A DNA stretch of 64,000 bases from Pseudonocardia sp. HH130630-07. GTDB lineage: Bacteria; Actinomycetota; Actinomycetes; Mycobacteriales; Pseudonocardiaceae. A program made the translations under genes and the position numbers. This document shows, in pieces, positions 1 to 52,047 of the stretch (the first letter of the stretch is position 1; the number at the start of each line of letters is the position of its first letter). The notes under the pieces were generated by a model that saw only the letters and a program-made list of their open reading frames with translations, ran no database searches and was not told the origin of the DNA. Location of the stretch: the NCBI RefSeq assembly GCF_001698125.1, contig NZ_CP013854.1, forward strand, positions 5,828,001 through 5,892,000. Direction: 5' to 3'.

Positions 1-1226
1 CGTGCCGCCGACCGAGCGCAGGTGGCCGGTGCCCGGGTGCGCGACCGACGCCAGCACCCGGTCGCCGTCCGGCCCGGACAGGACGACCTGCTGCGGCAGC
101 CCGTAGGACTCCTCGATCGTGCACACCCGGCCGTCGGCGGTGAACGCACCGTCGGGATGGAAGGTGCTGCCGCCGCGCGCGGTCGCGGAGGCGACGACCT
201 CGGTCACGGGGCCGTCGGGGCCGTCGGGGACCGGAAGGACGCCGGCCACCGACTCCAGGCGGCGCAGGCCCAGGTAGCCGAGCCGGGCGTCGTCGATCCA
301 CTGCAGCCGGGTCACGTCGACGCCCCGGGTGTCGACCCGCCGGACCGCACCCGACCCGGTGTCGACGAGCAGGAGGTCCCCGGCGACCACCCAGCGGTCG
401 CTGCACACCGCCTCGGCCACCGCGATCCACCGGCCGTCCGGTGAGCCGGCCGGCCACCCGAGCTGCACCGCGCTGCGCAGCAGCGTCCGGACCGAGCCGT
501 CGTCGGCACCGACGACGCTCAGCTCCGCGCCGTACCAGTCGTCCTCGCCCGGGCCGCCGGAGGTGACGGCCACGACCCGGTCCGAGCCGCACCAGCCGGC
601 CTCCCAGCAGTTCAGTCCCTCCGGGGTGAGCCGATCCAGCGCGCCGGTGGCCGGGGTGAACGACCACAGGCTGCGCCACGCCTCGCCGGGTGTCCCGCCC
701 TCGACCCGCGGGGCCCATGCCGGAGCGTCGGCGGACCCGGCGAGATTGACCCCCGAGCCCTGCCCGCCGGACAGCTCGGCACCGAGTCCGGCGACACCGA
801 GCAGGATCCGCCGCCCGTCCGGGGACCAGTGCAGGTACTCGACCGTGCCGGGCACCGGCGGTGTCCCCTCCGCCTCCCCCAGCCGGTCGTCCGCCAGCAG
901 GTGCAGCCCGAACACCCCGGGCTCCGCCCGGTCGGCCAGGAAAGCCAGCGTGTGCCCGTCCGGGGAGAACCGGGCGCCCCGGGCCGAGCACCCGGCCGCC
1001 GAGATCCGGCGGAGCGCGCCGTCGTCCGCGGTGAACAGCGCGGTGGGTGCCACCCCGTCGAACCCACCCGGGACGCTCGCGGTCACCACGGTGCGCAGCC
1101 CGTCGGCGCTCACGTGCAGCTCACGCAGGTCCGAGGGCCTGCCGAACCCCGGTTCGTGCACCGCACGCAGGTACTCCAGGACCTCCTCGTAGCGGGCCGT
1201 GCCGGTCACCGTCGTCCTCGCCGTCA
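1..1226 (-). CDS. S9 family (prolyl oligopeptidase-type) peptidase, N-terminal part, cut by window edge
   Basis: About 408 residues can be read from an ATG at 1226. The gene runs off the left edge, so the C-terminal catalytic domain is missing. The visible part has WD40/TolB-like propeller blades: FSPDG, WSPDG and SPDGRW repeats at roughly residues 90, 140 and 255. This is the N-terminal beta-propeller typical of S9 dipeptidyl/prolyl oligopeptidases. The hydrolase domain with Ser-Asp-His is presumed to lie outside the window. A complete S9 enzyme is encoded at 20322-22550, and both genes lie near PucR regulators. Family assignment rests on the propeller only, so a non-catalytic TolB-like protein cannot be excluded. 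Confidence 0.72.
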
Positions 1227-1383
1227 TGGGTGCTCCCTCCGTCGGTCCACACTCGCCGGTCACGATCCCCGCCCGGCCGGTCCCGGCTCCACCGCCGGCC
1301 GTCGCCGATCTGCCACCGGCGGTGCGACACCCGTCGGACGCCGTCGTCGCGCCCCGTACCGCGGCACCGTCCAGACTGGGGGG

Positions 1384-2421
1384 ATGAGAGCGATCGTCTA
1401 CCGCGACAAGGGCGACGCCGACGTGCTCCGGCTCGTCGACCGCGACCTCCCCGAACCCGGCCCCGGCGAGGTCCGGGTCCGGATCTCCGTGTCCGGGATC
1501 AACCCGACCGACTGGAAGTCCCGCGCGGACACCGGCTCCGTCATGCCCTTCCCCGAGGTCGTCCCGCACCTCGACGGCGCGGGCACGGTCGACGCCGTCG
1601 GACCGGGTGTCGACCACGGCCGGGTCGGTGAGCGCGTCTGGTTGTTCATGGCCGCGGCCGGACGGCCGACCGGCACCGCGGCCGAGTTCGCCGTCGTGCC
1701 CGCCGAGCTGACCGTGCCGCTGCCCGACGGGGCGGGGTTCGAGCTGGGCGCGGCGCTCGGCGTCCCCGCGCTCACCGCGCACCGTGCCCTCACCGTCGCC
1801 GAGGACGGGCCCCGCCGCCTCGGACCGGGCGCGCTGGACGGGAGGGTCGTGCTCGCCGCGGGCGGGGCCGGTGCGGTCGGGCACGCGGCGATCCAGCTCG
1901 CCCGCTGGGCCGGGGCCACCGTCGTCAGCACGGTCAGCGGGCCGGACAAGGCGCGGCTGGCCACCGCCGCCGGGGCGCACCACGTGGTCAACTACCGGGA
2001 GGGCGACCCCGCGGCGGAGATCCGCGGGATCGCCCCGGACGGCGTCGACATCGTCGCCGAGGTGGCGCTCGGCGCGAACCTCGCACTGGACCTGGCCGTC
2101 CTGCGGACCCGCGGCACGATCGCGACCTACGCCAACGACGGTGCCCGCCCGGTCGGGCTGGACGTCCGGCAGAACATGACGCTGAACACGCGTTTCCAGT
2201 TCCTGGTGCTCTACACCGTCGGTCCCGGGGCGCTGGCCGCCGGGGCCGCGGACGTCGCCGCCGCGGTGCGGGACGGCGCGCTGCCGGTGGGCGAGGAGCA
2301 CGGCCTGCCGCTGCTGCGCTTCCCCCTCGACCGCGCCCCGGAGGCGCACCGGGCGGTCGAGGGCGGCGCGGTCGGCAAGGTGCTGGTGGACGTCGCACCG
2401 GACGGCCCGGCCCCGGCCTGA
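1384..2421 (+). CDS. MDR-superfamily NADPH:quinone oxidoreductase / zinc-less alcohol dehydrogenase
   Basis: 345 residues from an ATG that fits the family N-terminus (MRAIVYRDKG). An N-terminal GroES-like domain contains the GINPTDWKSR segment usual in quinone oxidoreductases. It is followed by a Rossmann fold with GGAGAVG near residues 158-164. The cysteine/histidine zinc-lobe pattern of classical alcohol dehydrogenases is not seen, so a zinc-independent NADPH:quinone or enone reductase is likely. The length is normal for zeta-crystallin-like enzymes. It is divergent from the S9 peptidase, with 157 bp between the starts. The physiological substrate cannot be inferred. Confidence 0.85.
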   Translation: MRAIVYRDKGDADVLRLVDRDLPEPGPGEVRVRISVSGINPTDWKSRADTGSVMPFPEVVPHLDGAGTVDAVGPGVDHGRVGERVWLFMAAAGRPTGTAAEFAVVPAELTVPLPDGAGFELGAALGVPALTAHRALTVAEDGPRRLGPGALDGRVVLAAGGAGAVGHAAIQLARWAGATVVSTVSGPDKARLATAAGAHHVVNYREGDPAAEIRGIAPDGVDIVAEVALGANLALDLAVLRTRGTIATYANDGARPVGLDVRQNMTLNTRFQFLVLYTVGPGALAAGAADVAAAVRDGALPVGEEHGLPLLRFPLDRAPEAHRAVEGGAVGKVLVDVAPDGPAPA

Positions 2422-2517
2422 CCGTCCGGGACGGATGAACAGGTGTCGCGCCCGGGGTCCGGGTTGTTCGACGGGTGACGATCCCGGCCGGACCGGCCCG
2501 GGCGCGACCATGACACG

Positions 2518-3828
2518 GTGACTCTCACCGCGGACGCCGTCGTCGTCGGAGCCGGCGTGATCGGCTCCTCGACGGCCCTCGAACTCTCCCGCGCCGGCCT
2601 GCGGGTCGTCGTCGTCGACCGGCTCCCCGGGCCGGGCCAGGGCTCGACGAGCGCGTCGAGCGCCGTCGTCCGGTTCAACTACTCGACGTTCCCCGGGGTC
2701 GCCGCGGCGTGGGAGGCCCGGCACTGCTGGGAGTCCTGGCCGGAGCACCTCGGCCTGCCCGCCGGCACCGGCGGGACCGCGCGGTTCCGGCGGACCGGGA
2801 TGGTCTTCCTCGACGTCGACGTGGCGCCGCGGGACCGGGTGCTGCCGCTGTTCGACCGCGCCGGCGTCCCCTACGAGGTGTGGGACCCCGCCGAGCTGGC
2901 GCGCCGGGTGCCCGGACTCGACCCGGGCCGGTTCTGGCCCCCCAGGAGGCTCGACGACGACGCGTTCTGGGCCGACGCCGACGGCCGGATCGGCGGGGTG
3001 TGGACCCCGGACGCCGGCTGGATCGACGACCCGATGCGCGCCGCGGTCGACCTCGCCGACGCCGCCAGGGCCGCCGGGGCCAGGTTCGTGTTCCGGGACG
3101 GGGTGACGGCCGTGCGCCGGGCCGGCGACCGGGTCGCCGGCGTCGACCTGGCCAGCGGGGAACGGATCGACGCGCCGGTCGTCGTCAACGTCGCCGGGCC
3201 GTGGTCGGCACAGCTCAACCGGATCGCCGGGGTCGGTGCCGACTTCTCCGTGACGACCCGGCCGTTGCGCCAGGAGGTGCACGCCGTGTCGACACCCCCC
3301 GGTTACGACGACGGCGACCACCCCGGCCCGGTCGTCGCCGACCTGGATCTGGGCACCTACCTGCGCAGCGCCCCCGGCGGCACCTTCTACGTGGGCGGCA
3401 CCGAACCCGAGTGCGACCCGCTGCAGTGGCTCGACGACCCCGACGACGCCGACCCGAACCCGACCGCGGCGGTGTTCGACGCCCAGGTCACCCGGGCCGC
3501 CCGGCGCTTCGGGGAGCTGGCCGTGCCGCCCCGGCCGCGCGGCGTCGCGGGGGTGTACGACGTGTCGACCGACTGGGCCCCGATCTACGACCGGACGGAG
3601 CTGGACGGCTTCTACGTCGCCATCGGGACCAGCGGGAACCAGTTCAAGAACGCGCCGGTCGCCGGTCGTTTCCTGGCCGCGATCGTCACGGCCGTGGAGA
3701 ACGGCCACGACCACGACGCCGATCCGGTCGGGTACCGCGGCGAGCACACCGGGCTCACCGTCGATCTCGGGGCGTTCTCCCGCCGTCGTGAGCTGAACCC
3801 GGACTCCAGCGGGACCGTGATGGGCTGA
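2518..3828 (+). CDS. FAD-dependent oxidoreductase, DAO family (sarcosine/amino acid oxidase-like)
   Basis: 436 residues. GxGxxG (G11, G13, G16) within VVGAGVIGSS marks the FAD-binding Rossmann motif, followed by the acidic VVVDR. The C-terminal segment YDVSTDWAPIYDR...IGTSGNQFKNAP matches the FAD/substrate-closing region of DAO-family oxidases. It probably oxidises a secondary amine or amino acid in the cytoplasm. The GTG start has no convincing ribosome-binding site, but the reading frame begins directly with the nucleotide-binding strand, so little can be missing. It converges on the PucR gene with six bases between the stops. The regulator's operon may control related nitrogen metabolism; this is inference. 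Confidence 0.85.
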   Translation: MTLTADAVVVGAGVIGSSTALELSRAGLRVVVVDRLPGPGQGSTSASSAVVRFNYSTFPGVAAAWEARHCWESWPEHLGLPAGTGGTARFRRTGMVFLDVDVAPRDRVLPLFDRAGVPYEVWDPAELARRVPGLDPGRFWPPRRLDDDAFWADADGRIGGVWTPDAGWIDDPMRAAVDLADAARAAGARFVFRDGVTAVRRAGDRVAGVDLASGERIDAPVVVNVAGPWSAQLNRIAGVGADFSVTTRPLRQEVHAVSTPPGYDDGDHPGPVVADLDLGTYLRSAPGGTFYVGGTEPECDPLQWLDDPDDADPNPTAAVFDAQVTRAARRFGELAVPPRPRGVAGVYDVSTDWAPIYDRTELDGFYVAIGTSGNQFKNAPVAGRFLAAIVTAVENGHDHDADPVGYRGEHTGLTVDLGAFSRRRELNPDSSGTVMG

Positions 3829-39867: not shown

Positions 39868-40869
39868 ATGGGTGACATCGCCAGGCTGGACGAGCTGGAC
39901 CGGCAGATCGTCGCCGCCCTGCAGGTCGACGGGCGGGCGTCGTGGTCGGCCGTGGCGCACGCGCTGGGCACCTCGGAGACCACCGTGGCCCGGCGCGGCC
40001 AGTACCTGCTCGACTCGCGCACGGTCACCGTCACCGGCCTGCTCGACGACCTGCGCTGCGGGCTCGGCATCGGGATCATCGTGCGCATGCGCTGCCGGCC
40101 CGGCCGGGCCAACGCCGTCGCCGACGCACTCGCCGAGCTGCCGACCGTCCGCTTCGTCACCGTGGTGTCCGGCAGCGCCGACGTCGCCGCGGAACTCGTC
40201 GTCCCCCGCCACGAGGACGTCGCGTCCGTGCTGGTCGAGGACCTCCCGCGGCCCGACGACATCGTCGACACCGAGTCGATGGTCGTCGTCCGCAAGTTCC
40301 GCGCCTTCGAGGAGTGGGACACCGGCCTGCTCGGCCCGGCCGCGACCGCGGCGCTGCGCCCGCGCCGCGCGGTGGGCGAGCACACCGACTGGAGCCGGAT
40401 CGAACGGCTCAGCGAGTCGGAGCTGGTCATCGCCCGGCTGCTCGCCCGCCAGGGCCGCGCCACCTACACCCGGATCGCCGCCGCGTCGGGGGCCAGCGAG
40501 TCGACCGTGGCCCGCCGGGTCGAGTCCCTGGTGACCCGGGGCTGCCTGCGGTTCCGGGCGATGTTCGAGCCGCAGGTCGTCGGCTTCGACGTCAACTTCA
40601 TGCAGTGGCTCGCCGTCGAGCCGTCCCGGCTGGAGGAGGCCGGGCGGCTGCTGGCCAAGGAGCCGTCCTCGCGCTACGTCGGGGCCACCACCGGCCGGTT
40701 CAACCTCGTCCTGCACGGGTCGCTGCCCGGCTACGGGGACCTCTACGACTACCTCACCCGGGTGGTCGGGTCCCTGCCCGGCGTGCAGGCCGCCGACATG
40801 ACCCTGCAGGCCAGAACGCTGAAACGGGCCTGGCTGCGGCTCGGCGACGACGAGCGGGTGGTCGCATGA
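39868..40869 (+). CDS. Tandem AsnC/Lrp family transcriptional regulator
   Basis: 333 residues, about twice the usual AsnC length. It holds two helix-turn-helix units: [37 protein letters not shown] (about 6-45) and [41 protein letters not shown] (about 183-225). Each is followed by a RAM-like ligand domain. Such double Lrp proteins are common in actinomycetes. The ATG has no clear Shine-Dalgarno sequence. Its stop overlaps the next gene (ATGA), so regulator and fusion protein are co-translated. It probably controls the divergent deacetylase operon through the dyad at 39811. Confidence 0.87.
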
Positions 40870-43277
40870 GCACCCGGTGGCTCGCCGGAGCGCTGGTCCT
40901 CGCCGGCGCCCTGCTCGCCGGGTGCGCGCCGGCACCGGCCGGCCCGGCCGAGACCGGCACCGTCCGGACGGTGCTGCTGTCGGACCCGTCGAGCTTCGAC
41001 CCGGCGCTGGCCCAGGGCCAGCAGACCTTCCAGGTCGCCGGGCTGCTCTACGACACCCTGCTGCGCCGCGACGCCGGTGGGCGGCTGGTCGGCGGCCTGG
41101 CTACCGGCTGGGACGCCGTCTCCCCCTCGGACTACACGTTCGACGTTCGGCGCGACGCCACCTGTGCCGACGGCACCCCGATCACCGCGACCGTCGTCGC
41201 CGACTCGCTGCGCCGCCTCTCGAGCCCCGAGCTGAAGTCCACCTGGAAGAACCTCGTGTTCGGCACCGGGGCGGTCACCGTCACCGCGGACGACGCGGCG
41301 GGCCGGGTCCGCGTGCAGCTCGCGACCCCGTTCACCACGCTCCCGCAGGGGCTGTCCATCGCCCAGGCCGGCATCGTCTGCCCGGCCGGGACCGCCGACC
41401 CGGACGGCCTCGCCGCGGGTTCGGTGCCGGGAGCGTTCTCCGGGCCGTGGGTGCTGGAGCAGGCCCAGCAGGGACTGTCCTACGCCTTCGCGCTCCGCCC
41501 GGACTACGACGCCTGGCCGCGGTTCTCGACCCCGCTGCAGGGCAGGCCGCCGGAGCGGATCGAGGCCGCGATCTCGACCGACCAGTCGAGCCTGGCCAAC
41601 CAGATCCTGGCCGGCGACATCGACCTGGGCCAGTTCGCCGACCCGGCGGCGGTGGCCCGGTTCGAGGCCCAGCCGGACGTGCACCGCTACCCGGTCACGA
41701 CGTCGACCGCCTACGTGGTGTTCAACCAGCGTCCGGGGCGGATCTTCGCCGACCGGCCCGAGCTGCGCCGCGGCGTCGCGGCGGCGATCGACCAGCGGGC
41801 GTTCAACCAGGTGTTCTCCAAGGGCACCGCCGAGGTGCTCGCCTCGGTGTCCCCGGCCAGCTTCGAGTGCGCCAACACCGACCGGTCGCTGATGCAGCAA
41901 CGGGACCCGGAGCTCGCCGCGCGCACCCTCACCGGGCAGGGCCCGATCACGATGATCGGCAACACCGCCAACCGGCAGTTCTCCGGGGGCGCCGACTACC
42001 TCTACGCGGCCCTGGCCGACGCCGGGGCCCAGGTGCGCATGGACAAGGTCGACAACGCGACGTTCTGGTCCACGATCGCCGAGGGCGACTCGGACTGGGA
42101 CATGGTCTTCCTCGGGGACCTCAACTCGGTGGGCGCGATCAGCGCCTCGCTGGACCGGGTGATCGGCACCGGGGTCGGCGGGACCGGCGTGGTCGGCGTG
42201 CTGCGCAACGGCCCCGGCACCTCGGTACTGCTGCGCGCCGACATGGACGCGCTCCCCGTCGCCGAGGTCGAGAAGGTGCCCTACCGCAGCACGGTCACCA
42301 CCACCGGCCCGGACGGCGACACCACACCGGTCATGCACGCCTGCGGCCACGACACCCACGTCACCGCGCTGCTGGGTGCGGCGGCGCAGCTCGCGGCGCA
42401 CCGCGGGCACTGGTCCGGCACGGTGCTGGCGGTGTTCCAGCCCGCCGAGGAGATCGGCGCCGGGGCCAGGGCCATGCTCGACGACGGGTTCGCCGACCGC
42501 TTCCCCGCCTACGACGTGGCGCTCGGCCAGCACATCACCTCCGCCCCGCGCGGGCACCTCTACGCCCGGCCGGGCGTGTTCATGGCCGCCGCGGACAGCC
42601 TGCGGGTGACCGTGTTCGGCCGGGGCGGGCACGGCTCCACCCCGCAGGCGTGCGTCGATCCGATCGTCATCGCGGCGTCGATGGTGCTCCGGCTGCAGAC
42701 CGTCGTCGCGCGCGAGATCGCCCCGTCCGACGTCGCCGTCGTCACCGTGGGCGCGATCCGGGCCGGGTCGAAGGAGAACGTCATCCCGGACCGGGCGGAG
42801 CTGAAGCTGAACATCCGCACGTTCGACCCGGACGTCCGGGAGACGGTGCTCGCCGCCGTGCGCCGGATCGTCGACGCCGAGGCGGCCGCCGGCGGTGCTC
42901 CCCGGCCGCCGGAGATCGCGCCGCTCAACGACTTCCCGCTGCTGCGCAACGACGAGACCGCGACCGCCCGGCTCGTCGAGGCGTTCACCGGGCACTTCGG
43001 GGCCGGCCAGGTGCACGACACCATCGCCAAGGCGGGCAGCGAGGACTTCGGGATGTTCGGCACCGTGGCCGGGGTGCCGTCGGTGTTCTGGAACTTCGGC
43101 GGCTTCGACCCCGACCTCTACCCGGACGGCCCGCAGCGCCCGCAGCCCGCCGTCGCCGCCGGTCTGGCGCCCGGCGGGCACTCCCCGGACTTCGTCCCGA
43201 CCGGGGTCGAGCCGACCCTGAACCGGGCGGCCGAGGCGCTGGTGGTGGCCGCGGCGGCATGGCTCGACCCGGCGTGA
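40866..43277 (+). CDS. Chimera: ABC substrate-binding lipoprotein (SBP family 5) fused in frame to an M20 amidohydrolase
   Basis: 803 residues in one open frame. Residues 1-20 form a lipoprotein signal (lipobox LLAGC, Cys20). Residues about 30-433 match peptide/opine-type solute-binding proteins ([38 protein letters not shown]). At about 42160-42180 the sequence changes within [12 protein letters not shown] to an M20D peptidase without its first 60-70 residues. The M20 metal ligands remain: D459/D461 in RADMD, H491 and H495 in HACGHD, E528/E529 in PAEE, and H772. The binding protein lacks its C-terminal lobe end, and no permease or ATPase genes follow. This looks like an in-frame deletion that removed an ABC operon and joined its ends. 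A lipid-anchored, extracytoplasmic M20 enzyme is possible but untested. Confidence 0.85.
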
Positions 43278-43794: not shown

Positions 43795-44796
43795 ATGAGC
43801 TACCGGGCGGACGACGACCGCTACACGACGATGCCCTACCGCCGCAGCGGGCGCAGCGGCCTGCTCCTCCCGGCCGTCTCGCTGGGCCTGTGGCAGAACT
43901 TCGGCGACGTCAACCCGATCGACGGCCAGCGGGCGATCCTGCGCCGGGCGTTCGACCGCGGGGTGACCCACATCGACCTGGCGAACAACTACGGCCCGCC
44001 CTACGGCAGCGCCGAGACCAACTTCGGGCGGATCTTCGCCGACGACCTCCGCCCCCACCGCGACGAGCTGGTGATCTCGACCAAGGCCGGGTTCGACATG
44101 TGGCCGGGCCCGTACGGCGACCACGGTTCCCGCAAGTACCTGCTGGCCAGCCTGGACCAGTCGCTGGGCCGGATGGGCCTGGACCACGTCGACGTCTTCT
44201 ACTCCCACCGGCCCGATCCCGACACCCCGCTCGAGGAGACGATGGGCGCGCTGCACACCGCCGTGCAGTCCGGCCGGGCGATCTACGCCGGGATCTCGAG
44301 CTACTCCCCCGAGCGGACCCGGCAGGCGGCCGAGATCCTGGCCGGGCTGGGCACACCGCTGCTGATCCACCAGCCGTCCTACTCGATGTTCAACCGCTGG
44401 GTCGAGGACGGGCTGCTCGACACGCTCGGCGAACTCGGTGTCGGGTGCATCGCGTTCTCCCCGCTGGCCCAGGGCCTGCTGACCGGCCGCTACCTCGACG
44501 GCATCCCCGCCGGGTCCCGGGCCGCCCGGGAGGGCTCGTTGCGCACCGACATGCTCGACGAGGACACGCTGTCCCGGATCCGCGCGCTGAACGAGGTGGC
44601 GGCGGGCCGCGGGCAGAGCCTCGCCCAGCTCGCGCTGTCCTGGGTGCTGCGTGACGCCCGGGTCACCAGCGTCCTGGTCGGGGCGTCCTCGGTGGCCCAG
44701 CTCGACGACAACCTCGACGCCGTCGACCGGCTGGACTTCGACGACGAGGAGCTGTCCACGATCGACCGGTACGCCGTGGACCGTCAGCGGCGGTAG
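43795..44796 (+). CDS. Aldo/keto reductase (YghZ/L-glyceraldehyde-3-phosphate reductase-like)
   Basis: 333 residues. A complete AKR tetrad is visible: Asp and Tyr in HIDLANNYGPPYG, Lys in ISTKAGFDMWPGPYG, and His in DVFYSHRPDPDTP. The YGPPYGSAETNFGRI and GPYGDHGSRKYL stretches are characteristic of the AKR14/YghZ subgroup. It reduces aldehydes with NADPH. Its 3' end overlaps the convergent amidohydrolase gene by 13 bp. In contrast to the AKR pseudogene at 11.0-12.0 kb, this gene is intact. Confidence 0.92.
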   Translation: MSYRADDDRYTTMPYRRSGRSGLLLPAVSLGLWQNFGDVNPIDGQRAILRRAFDRGVTHIDLANNYGPPYGSAETNFGRIFADDLRPHRDELVISTKAGFDMWPGPYGDHGSRKYLLASLDQSLGRMGLDHVDVFYSHRPDPDTPLEETMGALHTAVQSGRAIYAGISSYSPERTRQAAEILAGLGTPLLIHQPSYSMFNRWVEDGLLDTLGELGVGCIAFSPLAQGLLTGRYLDGIPAGSRAAREGSLRTDMLDEDTLSRIRALNEVAAGRGQSLAQLALSWVLRDARVTSVLVGASSVAQLDDNLDAVDRLDFDDEELSTIDRYAVDRQRR

Positions 44797-45866
44797 GGCT
44801 CGCCGGCGATCCACACCGCCCGGATCGCCCGGGTGGCGGTGATGTCCGTGGCCGGGTCGCCGTCGACGAGCAGGAGGTCGGCGCGCCGGCCGGGTGCGAT
44901 CCGGCCCCGGTCGGTGAGCCCGAACCGGGCGGCGGGCAGCGAGGTGGCCGCGACGAGCGCGTCGACCGGCGGGTACCCCGCCCCGACCAGCAGTTCCAGT
45001 TCGTGGTGCAGGCTCGCCCCGAGCGGGATCGAGAACGGCAGCCCCGGCTGCTCGACCGAGTCCGTCCCGGCCAGCACCGGCACCCCGGCCTCCCGCATCG
45101 CCCGCACCGAGTCCCGGGCCGCCCCGTAGGTCTCCCCCGGTGCGGCCCGGGCCGCGGTGAGCACCTCCGCGACGGTGAGGGTGGGGATCGCCAGCCGTCC
45201 CCCGGCCGTCATCGCCGCGGCGAGGTCGGCACCGACCGGGGTGCCGGTCGGGACGTGGGTGAGGACGTCGGCGCCCGCCTCGTGGGCGAGCACGAACGCG
45301 TCGTGATGGCTCGCGTGCGCGACGACCCGGCGGCCGAGCGCATGCGCCTCCCGCACCACCGCGGCGACCACCTCGGGCGACGGTCCGCCGCGGCCGGGGG
45401 CCTCGACCACCACCTTGAGGTAGTCCGATCCGTCGGCGATCCGGCGGGCGACGCCCTCGGCGGCCGCGTCCGGATCGGTCACCACCGCGTACTCCGGCAT
45501 CCCGAAGCGGGAGTGCGGCCCGGCCGGGCCGATCACCGGTACCCCGGCGCTGAGCAGGTCGGCGGTGCCGGTCTCGGCCCGTAGCGCCGCCGTCGTCGAC
45601 GCGGGCCAGGAGGCCATGTCGAACGCGGTCGTCACACCGTGGGCGGCGAGCGCGTCGAGGTGGCGGCGGGTGGTGAGGTGCACGTGCGCGTCGATCAGGC
45701 CCGGCAGCACGGTGCCACCCGCCCCGTCGACGACCTCCGCCCCCGCCGGCACGGCGGCCCCCGGCCCGGCGGCGACGACCGTGCCGCCGTCGACGACCAC
45801 GGTGCCGGTCCCGGCGGAGCGCTCCCCGTCGAAGATCCGGACTCCGGTGATGGCGATCGTGCTCAT
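44784..45866 (-). CDS. Amidohydrolase family protein
   Basis: 360 residues, ATG after GGGAGAACG. Motifs in order: LPGLIDAHVHLTT (HxH), YLKVVVEAPGRGG (bridging lysine candidate), VVAHASHHD and LTHVPTG (histidines), AGTDSVEQ (final aspartate), and a C-terminal GRRADLLLVDGDP strand. This is the imidazolonepropionase-like amidohydrolase group, related to the enzyme at 15667-16893. It is divergent, across 285 bp, from the lanthipeptide synthetase gene. Confidence 0.88.
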   Translation of the reverse strand: MSTIAITGVRIFDGERSAGTGTVVVDGGTVVAAGPGAAVPAGAEVVDGAGGTVLPGLIDAHVHLTTRRHLDALAAHGVTTAFDMASWPASTTAALRAETGTADLLSAGVPVIGPAGPHSRFGMPEYAVVTDPDAAAEGVARRIADGSDYLKVVVEAPGRGGPSPEVVAAVVREAHALGRRVVAHASHHDAFVLAHEAGADVLTHVPTGTPVGADLAAAMTAGGRLAIPTLTVAEVLTAARAAPGETYGAARDSVRAMREAGVPVLAGTDSVEQPGLPFSIPLGASLHHELELLVGAGYPPVDALVAATSLPAARFGLTDRGRIAPGRRADLLLVDGDPATDITATRAIRAVWIAGEPYRR

Positions 45867-46087
45867 CGTTCTCCCGTCCTCGGGCTGGGCGCCGGGACGG
45901 GGCGCCCGTCCTCGCGTCCATCGTCGCCGCCGCGGGCCGGTACCGCCGGACGACCGGGTGCGCCACGTCCAGACCTGCCACCCGAACGCGCTATGGACGC
46001 TGTCCCGCGGTGCAGATTTTCGGCCTGTGCGCGCCTGTCCTGTTGCGCCACAACGCCTTCGATGGCCAGGATCGAGCAGCGCCGAGG

Positions 46088-46111
46088 GTGACTGAACGTA
46101 AGTGACCGAAC
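46088..46111 (+). promoter_or_regulatory. Direct repeat GTGACTGAAC/GTGACCGAAC upstream of the lanthipeptide locus
   Basis: GTGACTGAAC at 46088-46097 and GTGACCGAAC at 46102-46111, 14 bp apart, 41 bp upstream of the synthetase start. Lantibiotic morphogen operons are usually activated by a response regulator that binds repeated sites; this pair is a candidate. No regulator gene of that type lies adjacent. Confidence 0.4.
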
Positions 46112-46151
46112 ACCTTCCGTGCGTTCCCTGATGGCTCGACGGAGGAGGACC

Positions 46152-48734
46152 GTGCAGCAGCGGTACTGGGCGCACTGCCGGTCCGACCCGACGTTCTACG
46201 ATCGGCCCGAGGCCCGCGACGACCGGCCGGGTGACCGGTACGACGGGTCGGCCGCCGTCCCGGACGGATGGCGCGAGGTCCTCGACCCGACCTGGCGTCA
46301 CCTGGCCCCGCCGCGGACGCGACTGCCCGACCAGGGCTGGAAGATCCACGTCTCGGCGCTGCTCGACAACGCCGAGCGCGTACTGGCCGCGGTGGCGGCG
46401 CACTGCGTCGCGACCGGGACGCCGTTCAAGCACCTCCGGTCACGCCGCGTCCTGCTGTCCGGCAACGCGAAGGACGCCGACCGGGCGAGCAGCGGCAAGT
46501 TCGTCACCGTCTACCCCCGCGACGACGCCGACCTGGCCGGCCTGCTCGCCGGGCTCGCCCCCCTCCTGGCCGGCGAACAGGGACCACGGATCCTCAGCGA
46601 CCTGCGCATCGGCGACGGGCCGTTGCACGTGCGCTACGGCGGCTTCCGGCACCTGTGGTGCGACGACACCGACGGCGCTCGCGTCCCCGCCGTGCGCCGT
46701 CCGGACGGGGCTCTGGTCCCCGACCGGCGCCTGCCCCGGTTCGTGGTCCCGGACTGGGTCGACGTTCCCGGCTGCCTCGTCCCGCACCGCGACGCGACCG
46801 TCACCGGCGGCTCGGCTCTGCCCTTCACGGTGACCTCGGCCGTGCGGTTCTCGAACGCCGGCGGGATCTACCGGGCCGTCCCGGGCCCCGGCACCCCCGC
46901 CGCCGGTCTCGGCGGGACCGTCGTCCTCAAGGAGGCCCGCCCGGATGCCGGTTGGGACGCCTCCGGACGCGACGCGGTGGCCCGCCTGGCCCACGAGCAC
47001 GCGATGCTGCGGCGGCTGTCCGGGATCCCGGGGCTGCCCCGGTCCGGTGAGATCGTCGTCGCCGGCGGGCACCACTTCCTGCCCCTGGAGACGATGCCCG
47101 GCAGCACCCTGTCGACCTGGGTGGCGCGGAACCTGCCGGCGCAGGACCACGACGCTGCGGCCGGCGCCGGGTACGCGCGGCGGGCCACCGCCGTCGCCGA
47201 CCGGATCGACGCCGTCGTCGCCGCCGTGCACGCCCGCGGGATCGCGATCCGGGACCTGAACCCGGACAACGTCCTGGTCGACGACACCGACGACATCGAC
47301 GACACCGACGGCACCGTCCGGGTCTCGCTCGTCGACTTCGAGGTCGCCGGTGATCTCGACGACCGCGACGGCCACGGGCTGGGCACCCCCGGCTTCCGGC
47401 TGCCCGGGCGGCCGGCCGGACGCGCCGCCGACGACCACGCCCGCGCGGTGCTGCGGCTGTGGATGTTCCATCCCACCGCCCCGCTGCTCGAGGTCTCCCG
47501 GGCCCCGCTGGCCGGGTGGATCGACCACGCCCGGAGCCGGTTCGCACTCGGCTCCCGCTGGTCGGACCGGATGGCGCGGGACCTCGGCGTCACCGGGGAA
47601 CCGGCCGGCGCCGGCGCGCTCGGCCCCGGTCTGGTCGCCGGGATCCTCGGCTCGGCCACCCCGGACCGCCGGGACCGGCTGTTCCCCGGCGACATCGCCC
47701 AGTTCGACGTCGACGGGCTGTGCTTCGGCCACGGGGCCGCCGGCGTGCTGCACGCCCTGCGCGTGGCCGGCGCCGACCCGCGCCCCGCGCACGAGGCCTG
47801 GCTGCTCGACGCGCTCGCCCGGTACGAGCCCGACCGGGCCGGGCTGTGGCTCGGTGCCCCCGGGATCGCCTAAGCCCTCGACGGCCTCGGGCACACGGAG
47901 ATCGCCGGGGACCTGCTCCGGAACCACCTCGACCGCGCACCCGGTACGGACCCCGGCGTGCGCGGCGGACTCGCCGGGACCGCGCTGGTCGCCCTGGACC
48001 TCGCCGCCACCCACGACGACAGCGACCTGCAGGCACGCGGCCTCGCCATCGCCGAGCGACTCGCCGGCGCGGGCGAGCACGGTCCGGGCCCGACGGCGGC
48101 CGGGTTCCTCGACGGCTGGTCCGGGATCTGCCTGCTGCACGTCCTGGCGTTCGAGCGGACCGGCGACCCGGTGTGGCTCGACCGGGCCGGTACCGCGCTG
48201 CGCCGCGACCTGGCCCGCTGCCGGACCACCGGCGACGGCACCCTGGAGGCCGAGGACCCCGGCCACCCGCGGACGCTGCCCTACCTCGCCCGTGGCAGCG
48301 CCGGGGTGGCGCTGGCCGCGCTCGCGCTCGCGCGCCACGATCCCGGCCACGCCGGCGTGGCCGCGCTGCCCGGCCTGCTCGCCGCCTGCCGCACCGGCTT
48401 CGTCGTCCACCCCGGTCTCGGCCTCGGCGCCGCCGGACTCCTCCTCACCCTGGCCGGCGCACCGCCCGACCCGGCGACCACCCGGGTCATGGACGAGCTG
48501 ACCGCCTTGGTCGGGCGCCTCGCCGCCCCGGCCGGACCGGGCATCGCCGTCGGCGGTCACCAGCTGCTGCGGCTGTCCACCGACGTCGACACCGGCAACG
48601 CCGGCGTCCTGCTCGCGCTCGCCGCCCGCGGCGGGCACCCCTCGATCCTGCCCCTCCCCGGCCACGCGCACCGGTCCCCGACCGCCGGCGCCGGCCCCCT
48701 GACTTCGACCGGATCCGGTCGGGGAACCCACTGA
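46152..48734 (+). pseudogene. Class III lanthipeptide synthetase (LanKC/RamC-like) interrupted by an ochre codon
   Basis: GTG at 46152 follows GGAGGAGG and gives QQRYWAHCRSDPTFYDRP, the usual LanKC opening. The order is an N-terminal lyase-like region (about 1-200), a Ser/Thr-kinase-like domain (K260 in VVLKEA, D368 in IRDLNPDN, D395 in LVDFE), and a LanC-like cyclase. Codon 574 is TAA (47871-47873), inside GLWLGAPGIA-stop-ALDGLG where a Tyr-like residue is expected. The frame then stays open to 48734 with a normal cyclase (GLAGTALVALDLA, GWSGICLLHVLAF, GSAGVALAALALA). Without the stop the protein would be 860 residues, the family's normal size. As read, only lyase and kinase would be made. 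A single TAC/TAT-to-TAA change or a base-call error would explain it. Confidence 0.87.
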
Positions 48735-48748
48735 GAGAGGAACCAGCC

Positions 48749-48847
48749 ATGGACACCATCCTGGAGCTGCAGAACATGACCGCCGAGACCCTCGAGAACG
48801 GCGAGTACGGGCACAGCAGCCGGGTCAGCCTGCTGCTCTGCGACTAG
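48749..48847 (+). CDS. Class III lanthipeptide (SapB/RamS-like) precursor with a single labionin-type ring
   Basis: 32 residues, ATG eight bases after AGAGAGGA and 14 bp downstream of the synthetase frame. The leader carries I-L-E-L-Q at positions 4-8, the class III recognition motif (LFDLQ in RamS). The core is S24-R-V-S27-L-L-L-C31-D, an exact Ser-x2-Ser-x3-Cys labionin/lanthionine signature. It is nearly identical to the first ring of RamS/SapB (SRASLLLC). The peptide ends one residue after that Cys, so the second ring of SapB is absent. The predicted product is a short hydrophobic, surface-active morphogenetic peptide. No dedicated ABC exporter gene is adjacent. Confidence 0.88.
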   Translation: MDTILELQNMTAETLENGEYGHSSRVSLLLCD

Positions 48848-48882
48848 GAACCGCCGCGGTCTGACGACCGGGGAGCGGCTCG

Positions 48883-48948
48883 CCGGTGGGGCCTGCACCA
48901 CGCAGGCCCCACCGGCCCTCCGGCCCCGCCTGCATCGAAGGATGCAGG
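48883..48948 (+). terminator. Two tandem hairpins after the lanthipeptide precursor
   Basis: First stem: 14 perfect base pairs, CCGGTGGGGCCTGC (48883-48896) with GCAGGCCCCACCGG (48902-48915) and a 5-base loop. Second stem: CCTGCATC (48929-48936) with GATGCAGG (48941-48948) and a GAAG tetraloop. They begin 36 bp after the precursor stop, consistent with transcript termination or 3'-end protection of the small mRNA. Confidence 0.75.
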
Positions 48949-49049
48949 TCCCCGATCACCCACCTTCCTCCGATGTGTCGGCCCACCGGCCCGCTGCAGG
49001 CTTACCGCACCGGGCGGTGACCCAGCCTCCCCCGACACCGAGGACGATC

Positions 49050-49292
49050 ATGAGCGACACCGGTACCGGCCAGGACCCGACCGGACCCTCCGGCCCCGCA
49101 CGCCCCGCACCGGGCGGGCCGCCCCGCTGGGTGCTGTGGGCCGCGCTGGTCGCACTGCTCACCGTCAACGGCGCGGCGTCGCTGTCGTCGCTGCCCACCG
49201 TCGTCGGGGTGGTGTTCGGGCTGCTCGCCCTCGGCGTCGGCGCGCTGCTGGTCCGTGACCACCTCCGTCGGCGCAACCGCGTCTGGACGTGA
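49050..49292 (+). CDS. Small two-helix membrane protein, unknown
   Basis: 80 residues, ATG preceded by GAGGA. A Gly/Pro-rich N-terminal tail of about 25 residues is followed by two hydrophobic helices (WVLWAALVALLTVNGAAS and VVGVVFGLLALGVGALLV) and a basic end, RDHLRRRNRVWT. I do not recognise a family. It is downstream of the lanthipeptide terminator hairpins, so co-transcription is doubtful. It could still be an accessory such as an immunity or export helper; nothing in the sequence proves this. Confidence 0.6.
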   Translation: MSDTGTGQDPTGPSGPARPAPGGPPRWVLWAALVALLTVNGAASLSSLPTVVGVVFGLLALGVGALLVRDHLRRRNRVWT

Positions 49293-49302
49293 GGGCCCCG
49301 GG

Positions 49303-50082
49303 TCAGCGCCGGCGGTCGAGGATCGCCGTGATCTCCTCGGCCGACTTCGCGTACGGGTGCGGCGCGACGTCGAACACCGGCCGGACCGAGTCGTCGCGCT
49401 CGATCCCGAGCCGGTCGAACAGCACCGCCCGCGCCGCCTTGTCCTTCTCCGACTCCTGGATCGCGTAGGTCAGGACGTCGTCGACGTACGCAACCGGCAC
49501 GACGACGGCCCCGTCGCCGTCGGCGACGACCAGGTCGTCCGGACGCACCGGCTGCCCGCCGATCTCGACGGTCATGCCGTGCCCGCCCCACTCCACCCGG
49601 CCCTGGTACATCGGCTGCACGATCCACCGCGACCACACCGGCAGGTGCTTGCTCGCCAGCGTCTCGTCGGTGTCCCGCGCACCACCGTTGGTCAGGCACC
49701 CGCGCGCGCCGAGCGCGGCGTACATCATCGAATCTGCCGAGCCGACCGCGGGCGTCGCGGTGTCACAGGTGTCGACGACGAGGAAGGTGTGCTCGTCGAT
49801 CTGGTCGGCGAGGTCGTTGGCGAAGACCTTCCCGTACCAGTACTCGTAGGCCCACTTCGTGTAGTCCTGCGGCGACATCGTCGGCACCGTCTGCTGCGTC
49901 GGCACATGCCGACACGTCGTGGCGAACCCCGCCGCCTTCGTCCGCCACAACGGACGGATCTCCGGCGACACCGTCCCCGTGTGATGCAGACCGACCCAGT
50001 CCAGACCATCACGGACATCGGTCACCCGCAGCTTGCTGACGGTGTCCAGAACTTCCTTCTTGCGTTCACTGCTCAGCGACAA
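49303..50082 (-). CDS. RraA family protein (aldolase/dimethylmenaquinone-methyltransferase-like fold)
   Basis: 259 residues, TTG start preceded by GGAACGGAAGAG. The RraA-type active-site pattern is clear: MMYAALGARGCLTNGGARDTDE, then a late LVVADGDGAVVVPVAYVDDVL. Homologues include 4-hydroxy-4-methyl-2-oxoglutarate aldolases and oxaloacetate decarboxylases, and others occur in sugar and sugar-acid catabolic operons. It lies downstream of a sugar ABC operon on the same strand but is separated from it by an IS element inserted 22 bp before the start. The insertion may have cut it from its native promoter. Confidence 0.83.
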   Translation of the reverse strand: MSLSSERKKEVLDTVSKLRVTDVRDGLDWVGLHHTGTVSPEIRPLWRTKAAGFATTCRHVPTQQTVPTMSPQDYTKWAYEYWYGKVFANDLADQIDEHTFLVVDTCDTATPAVGSADSMMYAALGARGCLTNGGARDTDETLASKHLPVWSRWIVQPMYQGRVEWGGHGMTVEIGGQPVRPDDLVVADGDGAVVVPVAYVDDVLTYAIQESEKDKAARAVLFDRLGIERDDSVRPVFDVAPHPYAKSAEEITAILDRRR

Positions 50083-50104
50083 CGCTCTTCCGTTCCTGTG
50101 TGAG

Positions 50105-51089
50105 TGAGGTGTTCTCAGTAGTGGTGGTCGTTCCGCTGCGACACGCCGAGGGAGTGGAGATGTCTAGGACATGGGGCAGGGCCCCGGTAGAGCAGTTGGT
50201 CGACCAAGATCAACGAACTCTCCGAGGCCCCGCATGTCCGATCCTGTCACCTACACCGCTGTCCTCCCGATCGGGGAGCACACCGTGGCCTACCTGGCTC
50301 GGCTTCTGGCCGCTCAACGCTGTCGCCGCGGTACCCGCCCCCGGCGGCGGGCGTTGACCCCGTTCGCCCAGGCAGTGCTGGTGATCCGCTGGTTCTGCGA
50401 CGCCACCCGGGTCCGGCACCTGGCCCGCGACAACGCGATCAGTACCGCGACCACCTATCGCTACCTGCACGAAGGCATCGACGTCCTCGCCAGCGCCGCA
50501 CCCGGGCTGCACGGTGCCCTGCTCGCCGCCCGCCTCGCCGGACACACCCACGTTCACCTGGACGGCACCCTGATCGCCACCGACCGCTGCCGCGCGCTCG
50601 GCCCCACCGCGGGGGTCGACCTGTGGTGGTCGGGTAAACACCACCGCCACGGCGGGAACGTCCAGGTCGTGTCCGCCCCGGATGGATGGCCGCTATGGAC
50701 ATCCCCGGGAAGACCCGGGCGCGAACACGACGTGACCTGTGCCCGAGCCCACCCCGGTCTGCTCGAAGACCTCGATCACTGGATCGATGATGACCACGCC
50801 GCGCTGGGCGATCTCGGCTACGAAGGTGAGGCCCACCGACTCACCGTGCCGATCAAACCCATCCCCGCCGGCGGCCGAACAGTCGATCAGCGCACCGTCA
50901 ACAGCCTGCACTCAGCCACCCGAGCACTCGCCGAACGAGCAAACGCCCTGCTCAAGACCACCTTCGCAACGCTACAGCGAGTCACCCTCTGTCCCTGGCG
51001 CACCGGCGCGATCACCGCCGCCGCGCTCGTGTTACTCCACACCGAATACGACCGCACAACATGATCACCACGCTACTGAGAACACCTCA
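50105..51089 (+). mobile_element. IS5-type insertion sequence, about 985 bp
   Basis: Perfect 17-bp terminal inverted repeats: TGAGGTGTTCTCAGTAG at 50105-50121 and its complement at 51073-51089. Weaker similarity (TGGTG) extends inward. They enclose one intact transposase gene. Flanking 5-mers are GTGAG on the left and GTGTG on the right, so a target duplication is imperfect or the exact ends are off by a few bases. Intact repeats and an open transposase suggest a recent, possibly active copy. Confidence 0.88.
50234..51064 (+). CDS. IS5 family transposase (DDE_Tnp_4 type)
   Basis: 276 residues from an ATG at 50234, within the inverted repeats. An N-terminal helix-turn-helix region (LTPFAQAVLVIRWFCDATRVRHLARDNAISTATTYRYLHEG) precedes a DDE domain: HVHLDGTLIATDR (first Asp), GREHDVTCAR (second Asp), DLGYEGE (Glu region). 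Base use is slightly less GC-rich than neighbouring genes. A longer reading from 50171 is possible, but the ATG fits the usual MSDPVTYTA-type start. Confidence 0.88.
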   Translation: MSDPVTYTAVLPIGEHTVAYLARLLAAQRCRRGTRPRRRALTPFAQAVLVIRWFCDATRVRHLARDNAISTATTYRYLHEGIDVLASAAPGLHGALLAARLAGHTHVHLDGTLIATDRCRALGPTAGVDLWWSGKHHRHGGNVQVVSAPDGWPLWTSPGRPGREHDVTCARAHPGLLEDLDHWIDDDHAALGDLGYEGEAHRLTVPIKPIPAGGRTVDQRTVNSLHSATRALAERANALLKTTFATLQRVTLCPWRTGAITAAALVLLHTEYDRTT

Positions 51090-51207
51090 GTGTGCTCCGT
51101 CGGATGCGGACGGATTCCGGTTCTCGATCGGTCGTGCGGCCTCCGTGGGGTCGGTGGGACGGGCACGGAGCCCGACCGGGCCCCGCGGGTTCTGTGACCG
51201 GCGCCGC

Positions 51208-52047
51208 TCATCCACGGAGCCCGGTCGTGGCGATGCCGTTGACCAGCAACCGCTGGAAGGCGATGAACACCCCGAGCACCGGGAGCAGCGACACCACCGA
51301 CATCGCGAACAACGCCCCGAATGCGGACTCGGCGTTCGCGTCGACGAAACCGCGCAGCGCGAGCGGGACGGTGTACATCTCGGTGTCGGTCAGGTAGATG
51401 AGCGGGGTGAAGAAGTCGTTCCAGCTGTAGATGAACGTGAAGATCGCGGTCGTGGCCAGCGCCGGCTTCGCGAGCGGGAGCAGGATCCGCCAGAAGATCT
51501 GCAGGTGACCGCAGCCGTCGAGCCGGGCGGCCTCGTCCAGCTCACGCGGGATCGCCCGGAAGAACTGCACCAGCAGGAACACGAAGAAGGCGTCGGTCGC
51601 CAGCAGCTTCGGCACGACGAACGGGAGATAGGTGTTCACCCAACCGAACTCGCGGAACATCAGGTACTGCGGGATGAGGATCACGTGGTGCGGCAGCAGT
51701 AACGTGCCGATCATCAGCGCGAACAGCACCCGGCGGCCGCGGAAGTCGATGCGGGCGAACGCGTAGGCGGTGACCGAGCAGGCCAGCACGTTCGCCACCA
51801 CGCAGGCCACGGCGACCAGCAGGGAGTTGAGCAGGAACTGGCCGAATCCCACTCCGCCGAGTCCGGCCCAGCCCTCGGCGTAGGCGCTCCAGGTCGGGTC
51901 CGGCCCGGGCAGCAGCCCGGGATCCCCGATCCGGCTGTCGTCCCGGACCGACGCGCTGACCATCCAGGCCAGCGGGTAGAACATGACCGACGCCATGGCG
52001 AGGAGCAGCAGGTGGCGCAGGAACTCCGGTCGGCGCAGCATCGTCAT
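51208..52047 (-). CDS. Carbohydrate ABC transporter permease (MalG type)
   Basis: 279 residues; the ATG overlaps the stop of the preceding permease gene by one base (TGATG). Six membrane helices with the cytoplasmic EAA loop ELDEAARLDGCGHLQIFWRILLPLAKPAL near residue 190. The C-terminal FQRLLVNGIATTGLRG is typical of MalG-like subunits. It forms the inner-membrane channel with the adjacent MalF-type subunit. No ATPase gene is in the operon, as is normal in actinomycetes, where a shared MsiK-type ATPase serves many sugar importers. Confidence 0.92.
   Translation of the reverse strand: MTMLRRPEFLRHLLLLAMASVMFYPLAWMVSASVRDDSRIGDPGLLPGPDPTWSAYAEGWAGLGGVGFGQFLLNSLLVAVACVVANVLACSVTAYAFARIDFRGRRVLFALMIGTLLLPHHVILIPQYLMFREFGWVNTYLPFVVPKLLATDAFFVFLLVQFFRAIPRELDEAARLDGCGHLQIFWRILLPLAKPALATTAIFTFIYSWNDFFTPLIYLTDTEMYTVPLALRGFVDANAESAFGALFAMSVVSLLPVLGVFIAFQRLLVNGIATTGLRG

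What the first reader, a model, noticed from the sequence alone, without database searches (positions are those of the whole stretch)
48749..48847. One-ring SapB/RamS-like class III lanthipeptide precursor
The 32-residue peptide has the class III leader motif (ILELQ) and the exact Ser-x2-Ser-x3-Cys ring signature S24-S27-C31 embedded in SRVSLLLCD, almost identical to the first ring of SapB. It stops one residue after that Cys, so the second ring and intervening residues of SapB are missing. A minimal one-ring morphogen would be an informative variant for how surface activity depends on ring number.
Basis: partly seen in the sequence, partly recalled or inferred. Interest (0 to 1): 0.78.

Follow-up and report, generated by a model that had tools for sequence, protein, structure and literature searches.

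The report
One-ring SapB-like peptide, broken synthetase
An actinomycete carries a genuine short gene for a SapB-like peptide with room for only one ring, and the neighbouring gene for the enzyme that should make the ring is interrupted by a stop codon, so the peptide is probably not matured in this strain.

Summary
Window 48749-48847 (+) encodes a 32-residue peptide with S24/S27/C31 that passes the curated cut-offs of Pfam RamS and NCBIfam SapB/AmfS.

The other 286 codons follow in the same frame and still match the LanKC profile. It is the genome's only LanKC above the cut-off. In published work a LanKC lyase-kinase part was inert without its cyclase domain. The likeliest state is a recently disabled cluster.

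One-ring cores are not unique: in 12 chosen genomes of the same family 18 of 19 RamS matches are one-ring, and seven of the eleven one-ring regions examined have an uninterrupted LanKC beside the precursor. One-motif class III lanthipeptides from Firmicutes were published in 2022. No S-x2-S-x3-C remains downstream of the precursor in any frame, so the one-ring form probably predates the stop.

Verdict: new member of a known kind, probably silent. A morphogen role is untested.

The parts
48749..48847 (+). class III lanthipeptide precursor, SapB/AmfS (RamS) family, 32 aa, one S-x2-S-x3-C motif (S24, S27, C31)
48815..48844 (+). ring segment of the probable core, S23-S24-R-V-S27-L-L-L-C31-D32; leader cleavage site unknown
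   Evidence: sequence
46119..47873 (+). LanKC gene, first 584 codons (lyase, kinase, start of cyclase) and the in-frame TAA; GTG start as listed mechanically, not verified
47871..47873 (+). in-frame TAA stop inside the LanKC cyclase domain; a sense codon in all 88 aligned relatives
47874..48734 (+). rest of the LanKC reading frame (286 codons and TGA), most of the cyclase domain, matches NF038151 positions 577-833
48882..48916 (+). hairpin with a perfect 15-bp GC-rich stem, 34 bases after the precursor stop; terminator-like but without a T run
   Evidence: fold of 48848-48960, z -6.47

Best explanation
This is the remnant of a small class III lanthipeptide cluster: a LanKC synthetase gene followed directly by a SapB/AmfS-family precursor with a single ring motif. 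When the synthetase was whole, it would have bound the ILELQ leader, phosphorylated and eliminated the serines of SSRVSLLLC, and joined Cys31 to a resulting dehydroalanine, giving one lanthionine or labionin ring with a hydrophobic Leu-Leu-Leu face (inferred from the family). In this strain an in-frame stop cuts the synthetase about 90 residues into its cyclase domain (shown, by alignment to ThurKC), so the peptide is most likely left unmodified (inferred from the published behaviour of ThurKC). The stop looks recent: the codons after it still carry the LanKC sequence and codon bias. The one-ring form looks older, because no trace of a second SapB-type ring remains after the precursor's stop.
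For: Precursor family membership. The LanKC profile matches over 1-833 through one TAA, 790.9 bits, the only match in the genome over the cut-off. The two pieces match NF038151 at 1-574 and 577-833. The fourteen lyase and kinase positions of ThurKC named in the passages I read, and two catalytic-loop positions (recalled), are all kept. The C part is not more diverged than the N part: C/N identity ratio 0.865 against a median of 0.874, rank 39 of 89; GC3 0.945 and 0.937. PMC10604976: the lyase-kinase polypeptide of ThurKC neither phosphorylated nor dehydrated its substrate without the cyclase domain (section read). No ABC signature motif in ORFs over 200 codons from 9.1 to 64 kb of the window, while 49 of 79 named relatives have one within 4.5 kb after LanKC. 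One-ring precursors beside LanKCs in the same family.
Against: No reads were seen, so a base-call or assembly error at the stop is not excluded; the assembly is good (3 contigs, 100% complete, 0.75 contamination). One stop alone is weak proof of decay, and an open C frame is little evidence by itself at this GC content (160 of 2000 shuffles stay open). Lack of a nearby exporter is not diagnostic: 25 of 79 named relatives show no ABC motif near LanKC either, two of them (L044, L109) with little downstream sequence. [quoted passage not shown] Transcription was not examined.
Confidence: 0.66

Rival explanations
1. The cluster works. The stop is a sequencing or assembly error, or is read through, and the strain makes a one-ring SapB-like peptide that may act at the air-water surface.
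For: Catalytic residues kept, both halves equally conserved, precursor leader and ring intact, one-ring precursors stand beside uninterrupted LanKCs in seven regions of the family.
Against: The assembly is of high quality. TAA is the least leaky stop codon (recalled). The LanKC of this genome has the longest end branch of 89 in its N part (1.23) and the second longest in its C part (1.30), and departs at 11 of 153 conserved columns against a median of 2, which fits relaxed constraint. No exporter ATPase motif nearby.
Confidence: 0.2
2. A split synthetase: the 584-residue N piece and a re-initiated C piece (first GTG at 47958) act together in trans on the precursor.
For: ThurKC lyase-kinase and cyclase work as separate polypeptides (PMC10604976). 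The C frame stays conserved.
Against: The break is about 90 residues inside the cyclase fold, not at the domain boundary used in that work (486/487). The C piece from the first GTG would lack 28 residues, and by eye I saw no ribosome-binding site before it. All 88 aligned relatives have a frame of at least 780 residues (L209, which is not in one frame, was not in that set).
Confidence: 0.07
3. The N piece alone still phosphorylates or dehydrates the precursor, giving a linear or spontaneously cyclised peptide.
For: Lyase and kinase residues all kept; the paper cites activity of isolated domains in other class III or IV enzymes.
Against: ThurKC lyase-kinase was inert in vitro and when co-expressed with full-length precursor. 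A truncated cyclase domain is likely unstable (inference).
Confidence: 0.07

Closest known systems
SapB / AmfS family class III lanthipeptides (PF19402, NF033212), e.g. the precursor of Streptomyces pseudovenezuelae in L081, MNLFDLQSMETPKEEAMGDVESGSRASLLLCGDSSLSVTTCN
   Same: leader with L-x-L-Q type motif, ring 1 (S-R-A/V-S-L-L-L-C), adjacency to LanKC
   Different: stops after C-D, so the second ring is missing; LanKC interrupted; no exporter motif near
One-ring SapB-family precursors of other genera of the family (genus g3, e.g. L161 ...SHGSDISLLLCG; L186 ...SYLSLLLC; L199 ...SNLSLLVC)
   Same: one S-x2-S-x3-C at or near the C terminus, same leader type; ten that I scanned all pass NF033212
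   Different: of eleven such regions, seven have an uninterrupted LanKC beside the precursor, one (L209) has LanKC matches spread over frames, three (L202, L203, L204) have no LanKC match within about 8 kb
Bacinapeptins and paenithopeptins (Pre_24, Firmicutes)
   Same: core with only one S-x2-S-x2-5-C motif, matured by LanKC (PMC8960859, passages)
   Different: leader lacks their Q-A-(A/V)-(D/E) cleavage motif; different phylum
Lipolanthines (microvionin, nocaviogua)
   Same: class III synthetase, a single avionin-containing macrocycle (PMC10435860, passages)
   Different: here Asp follows Cys; no acyl-chain or PKS family in the five neighbouring ORFs scanned

Membership tests
SapB/AmfS family precursor (PF19402, NF033212) | profile score over curated cut-off | tested here: met
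   32.9 against 24.3 bits; 30.8 against 25
SapB/AmfS family precursor (PF19402, NF033212) | leader motif with L-x-L-Q | tested here: met
   ILELQ, residues 4-8; L7 and Q8 invariant in the 13 precursors aligned
SapB/AmfS family precursor (PF19402, NF033212) | two rings as in SapB and AmfS | tested here: not met
   one motif; no S-x2-S-x3-C in three frames downstream. Ten other one-ring peptides also pass NF033212, so the profile does not demand two
SapB/AmfS family precursor (PF19402, NF033212) | surface activity or induction of aerial hyphae | not testable with these tools
   needs an assay
class III lanthipeptide cluster | LanKC gene next to the precursor | tested here: met
   46119-48734, 790.9 bits read through the stop, cut-off 575; the N piece alone 583.7
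class III lanthipeptide cluster | uninterrupted LanKC reading frame | tested here: not met
   TAA at 47871-47873; sequencing error not excluded
class III lanthipeptide cluster | exporter (RamA/RamB-like ABC) beside the genes | tested here: not met
   no ABC signature motif in ORFs over 200 codons from 9.1 to 64 kb; the feature is not universal (49 of 79)
Pre_24 (bacinapeptin/paenithopeptin) | Q-A-(A/V)-(D/E) in the leader | tested here: not met
   absent from the 32 residues; motif taken
lipolanthine | C-terminal Cys turned into avionin, with acyl-chain genes | tested here: not met
   Asp follows Cys; no such family in five neighbouring ORFs. The C-terminal Cys rule is recalled

The most novel reading that the evidence does not exclude
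One-ring SapB-type precursors form a recurring, partly synthetase-independent kind in this family: some stand alone in genomes whose LanKC lies elsewhere (L198, L199, L201), and here the precursor remains whole beside a synthetase cut by a stop codon, so that a minimal one-ring (or even unmodified) peptide keeps a use of its own.
Probability: 0.12. Interest if true: 0.5.

Novelty: new member of a known kind. Interest (0 to 1): 0.3.

Why it matters
As a product it probably matters little in this strain. As a pointer it is useful: the same family holds other one-ring SapB-type precursors, seven of the eleven regions examined having an uninterrupted LanKC beside them, which are natural material for asking whether one ring suffices for surface activity or for a developmental signal. 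It also warns against reading a bioactive product from a precursor alone when the synthetase is broken.

Tried and rejected
Chance ORF: rejected by two curated profiles and LanKC adjacency. Recent nonsense or frameshift in a two-ring precursor: not supported, no S-x2-S-x3-C in three frames of 48842-49060 (one match to a looser motif at 48949 in frame 3, behind a stop). Rescue by another LanKC in the genome: not supported, the other ten matches score 19-76 bits against a cut-off of 575 and cover only the kinase or part of the cyclase region.

Empty-site test: the best same-genus match to the flanking amidohydrolase (73%, G038) shares only that gene with the window by blastn over the 20 kb fetched; inconclusive. 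Placing the LanKC in a tree: unsure, it sits on a very long branch and its neighbours differ between halves.

Corrections. One search counted conserved columns on an alignment in which some rows were wrong frames (L085 visibly so; others with many departures probably); I use instead. The per-position counts rest on that older alignment (the residue of this window agrees with 68-77 of 80 rows at the sixteen positions), so they are lower bounds. In one search my motif tag 'LanKC-kin' on L204 was false: that ORF is an O-methyltransferase. One search listed only its best rows; all listed rows have no internal stop, but this window's row is not among them.

Rfam found nothing over gathering scores in 44000-52000. 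Literature on Pseudonocardia or Pseudonocardiaceae class III peptides: listings only, nothing on one-ring members seen there; a search for class III, pseudogene and LanKC gave one review, not read. The review of Hegemann and Suessmuth (PMC8341899) is not held.

Full report
What is there. Pfam RamS (E 9.1e-08) and NCBIfam SapB/AmfS (E 2.4e-07) both score it over their curated cut-offs. It begins 14 bases after the end of a LanKC frame, behind a GAGAGAGG stretch, and is followed by a hairpin with a perfect 15-base stem at 48882-48916; the fold of 48848-48960 is stronger than all 200 shuffles (z -6.47). In 62 genomes of the genus, 4 have SapB/AmfS matches at E <= 0.01: this one (one match) and three others (five matches, all two-motif), so this is the only one-ring peptide among those six.

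The synthetase is interrupted. The frame listed from 46119 ends at a TAA at 47871-47873 after 584 residues; the same frame goes on for 286 codons to a TGA at 48732-48734. The two pieces match the class III model NF038151 at 1-574 and 577-833, and the whole matches 1-833 with one TAA inside at 790.9 bits (cut-off 575), the genome's only match over the cut-off. In an alignment with 88 relatives the stop column is a sense codon in all 88. Of the 57 rows, 56 are other places; one of these (G068:C1) also carries stops. That search used only the N piece as query. In one search every listed row is free of stops, but the listing is cut and does not include this window's row.

Age and state of the break. 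The C piece is as well kept as the N piece (identity ratio 0.865, median 0.874, rank 39 of 89) and keeps the same codon bias (GC3 0.945 and 0.937). This points to a recent stop or to an error in the sequence. Against plain health, the gene has the longest end branch of 89 for its N part and the second longest for its C part, and departs at 11 of 153 conserved columns (median 2; eight rows rank above it, one of them with the same count). The lyase and kinase residues that PMC10604976 tested or named in ThurKC (passages read) map by the HMMER alignment to K75, H77, K104, K118, K127, D161, R172, R204, K271, R289, E293 and the DFE motif (406-408); all fourteen are kept, as are D379 and N384 of the catalytic loop, whose role I recall.

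What the break should do. In ThurKC the lyase-kinase polypeptide alone neither phosphorylated nor dehydrated its substrate in vitro, and did not modify the full-length precursor when co-expressed; adding the cyclase domain as a separate chain gave activity (section read). [quoted passage not shown] The present break falls about 90 residues inside the cyclase domain, which begins at residue 491 of ThurKC. I infer that the peptide is most likely not modified in this strain.

The one-ring form is not unique. Among 80 named LanKC loci, 74 had a leader-motif candidate; three of these (L074, L077, L103) had only single-motif peptides, and three (L061, L067, L082) had candidates without the motif. 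The RamS model matches 194 of 390 genomes of the family. The 30 best matches are all two-motif (L125-L154). I then chose weaker-scoring genomes, a biased sample. In 12 of them 18 of 19 matches are one-motif. Another 26 genomes gave 58 rows; of the 28 fetched as new loci, 17 are one-motif, 8 two-motif and 3 unresolved. I fetched wider regions around twelve matches, eleven of them one-ring. Eight of the eleven have LanKC matches beside the precursor (L205-L211, L213). Seven of these LanKC frames are uninterrupted (857-972 residues); in L209 the matches are spread over frames. The other three have no LanKC match within about 8 kb (L202, L203, L204), and those three genomes have uninterrupted LanKCs elsewhere.

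Prior knowledge. PMC8960859 (passages) states that Pre_24 cores contain only one S-(X)2-S-(X)2-5-C motif, unlike the two or three commonly seen before, and describes their products bacinapeptins and paenithopeptins. PMC13380574 (passages) says that SapB and AmfS hold two lanthionines and that the SapB/AmfS group counts more than 4,000 sequences. So one-ring class III peptides are known, and the present one is a family member, not a new kind. I saw no report of one-ring members in Pseudonocardiaceae in the listings, which is no proof that none exists.

Judgement. A working minimal morphogen in this strain is unlikely on present evidence (about 0.2). The wider set of one-ring precursors with uninterrupted LanKCs is the more useful lead.

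Noticed in passing
window 40866-43274 (+): One open frame joins a solute-binding protein (SBP_bac_5, residues 74-421) to an M20 peptidase (from residue 455), as if a deletion had fused two genes; a second sign of decay or of misassembly about 3 kb from the LanKC.
   Followed up: partly
L198 (G081), L199 (G066), L201 (G380): One-ring SapB-family precursors with no LanKC match within about 8 kb, in genomes whose LanKCs lie elsewhere (in the one-contig genome G081, more than 1.5 Mb away); L201 follows an O-methyltransferase gene.
   Followed up: partly
L209 (G448), 1-3100: A second one-ring precursor whose neighbouring LanKC matches are spread over reading frames, in a draft genome of about 120 contigs; decay or sequence error.
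   Followed up: partly
L189-L193, L195-L197, L077, L103: A second short one-ring type, S-T-x-S-x-x-C at or one residue from the C terminus, often in two or three tandem copies; LanKC adjacency was seen for G415 (L190/L211), L077 and L103 only.
   Followed up: no
L067: A contig labelled Rhodococcus rhodnii carries a LanKC that groups tightly with Kibdelosporangium; possibly a mislabelled genome.
   Followed up: no
window 50171-51064 (+): IS5-like transposase gene (DDE_Tnp_4; below the cut-off of the NCBIfam IS5 model) about 1.3 kb downstream of the precursor, in a stretch of lower GC.
   Followed up: no
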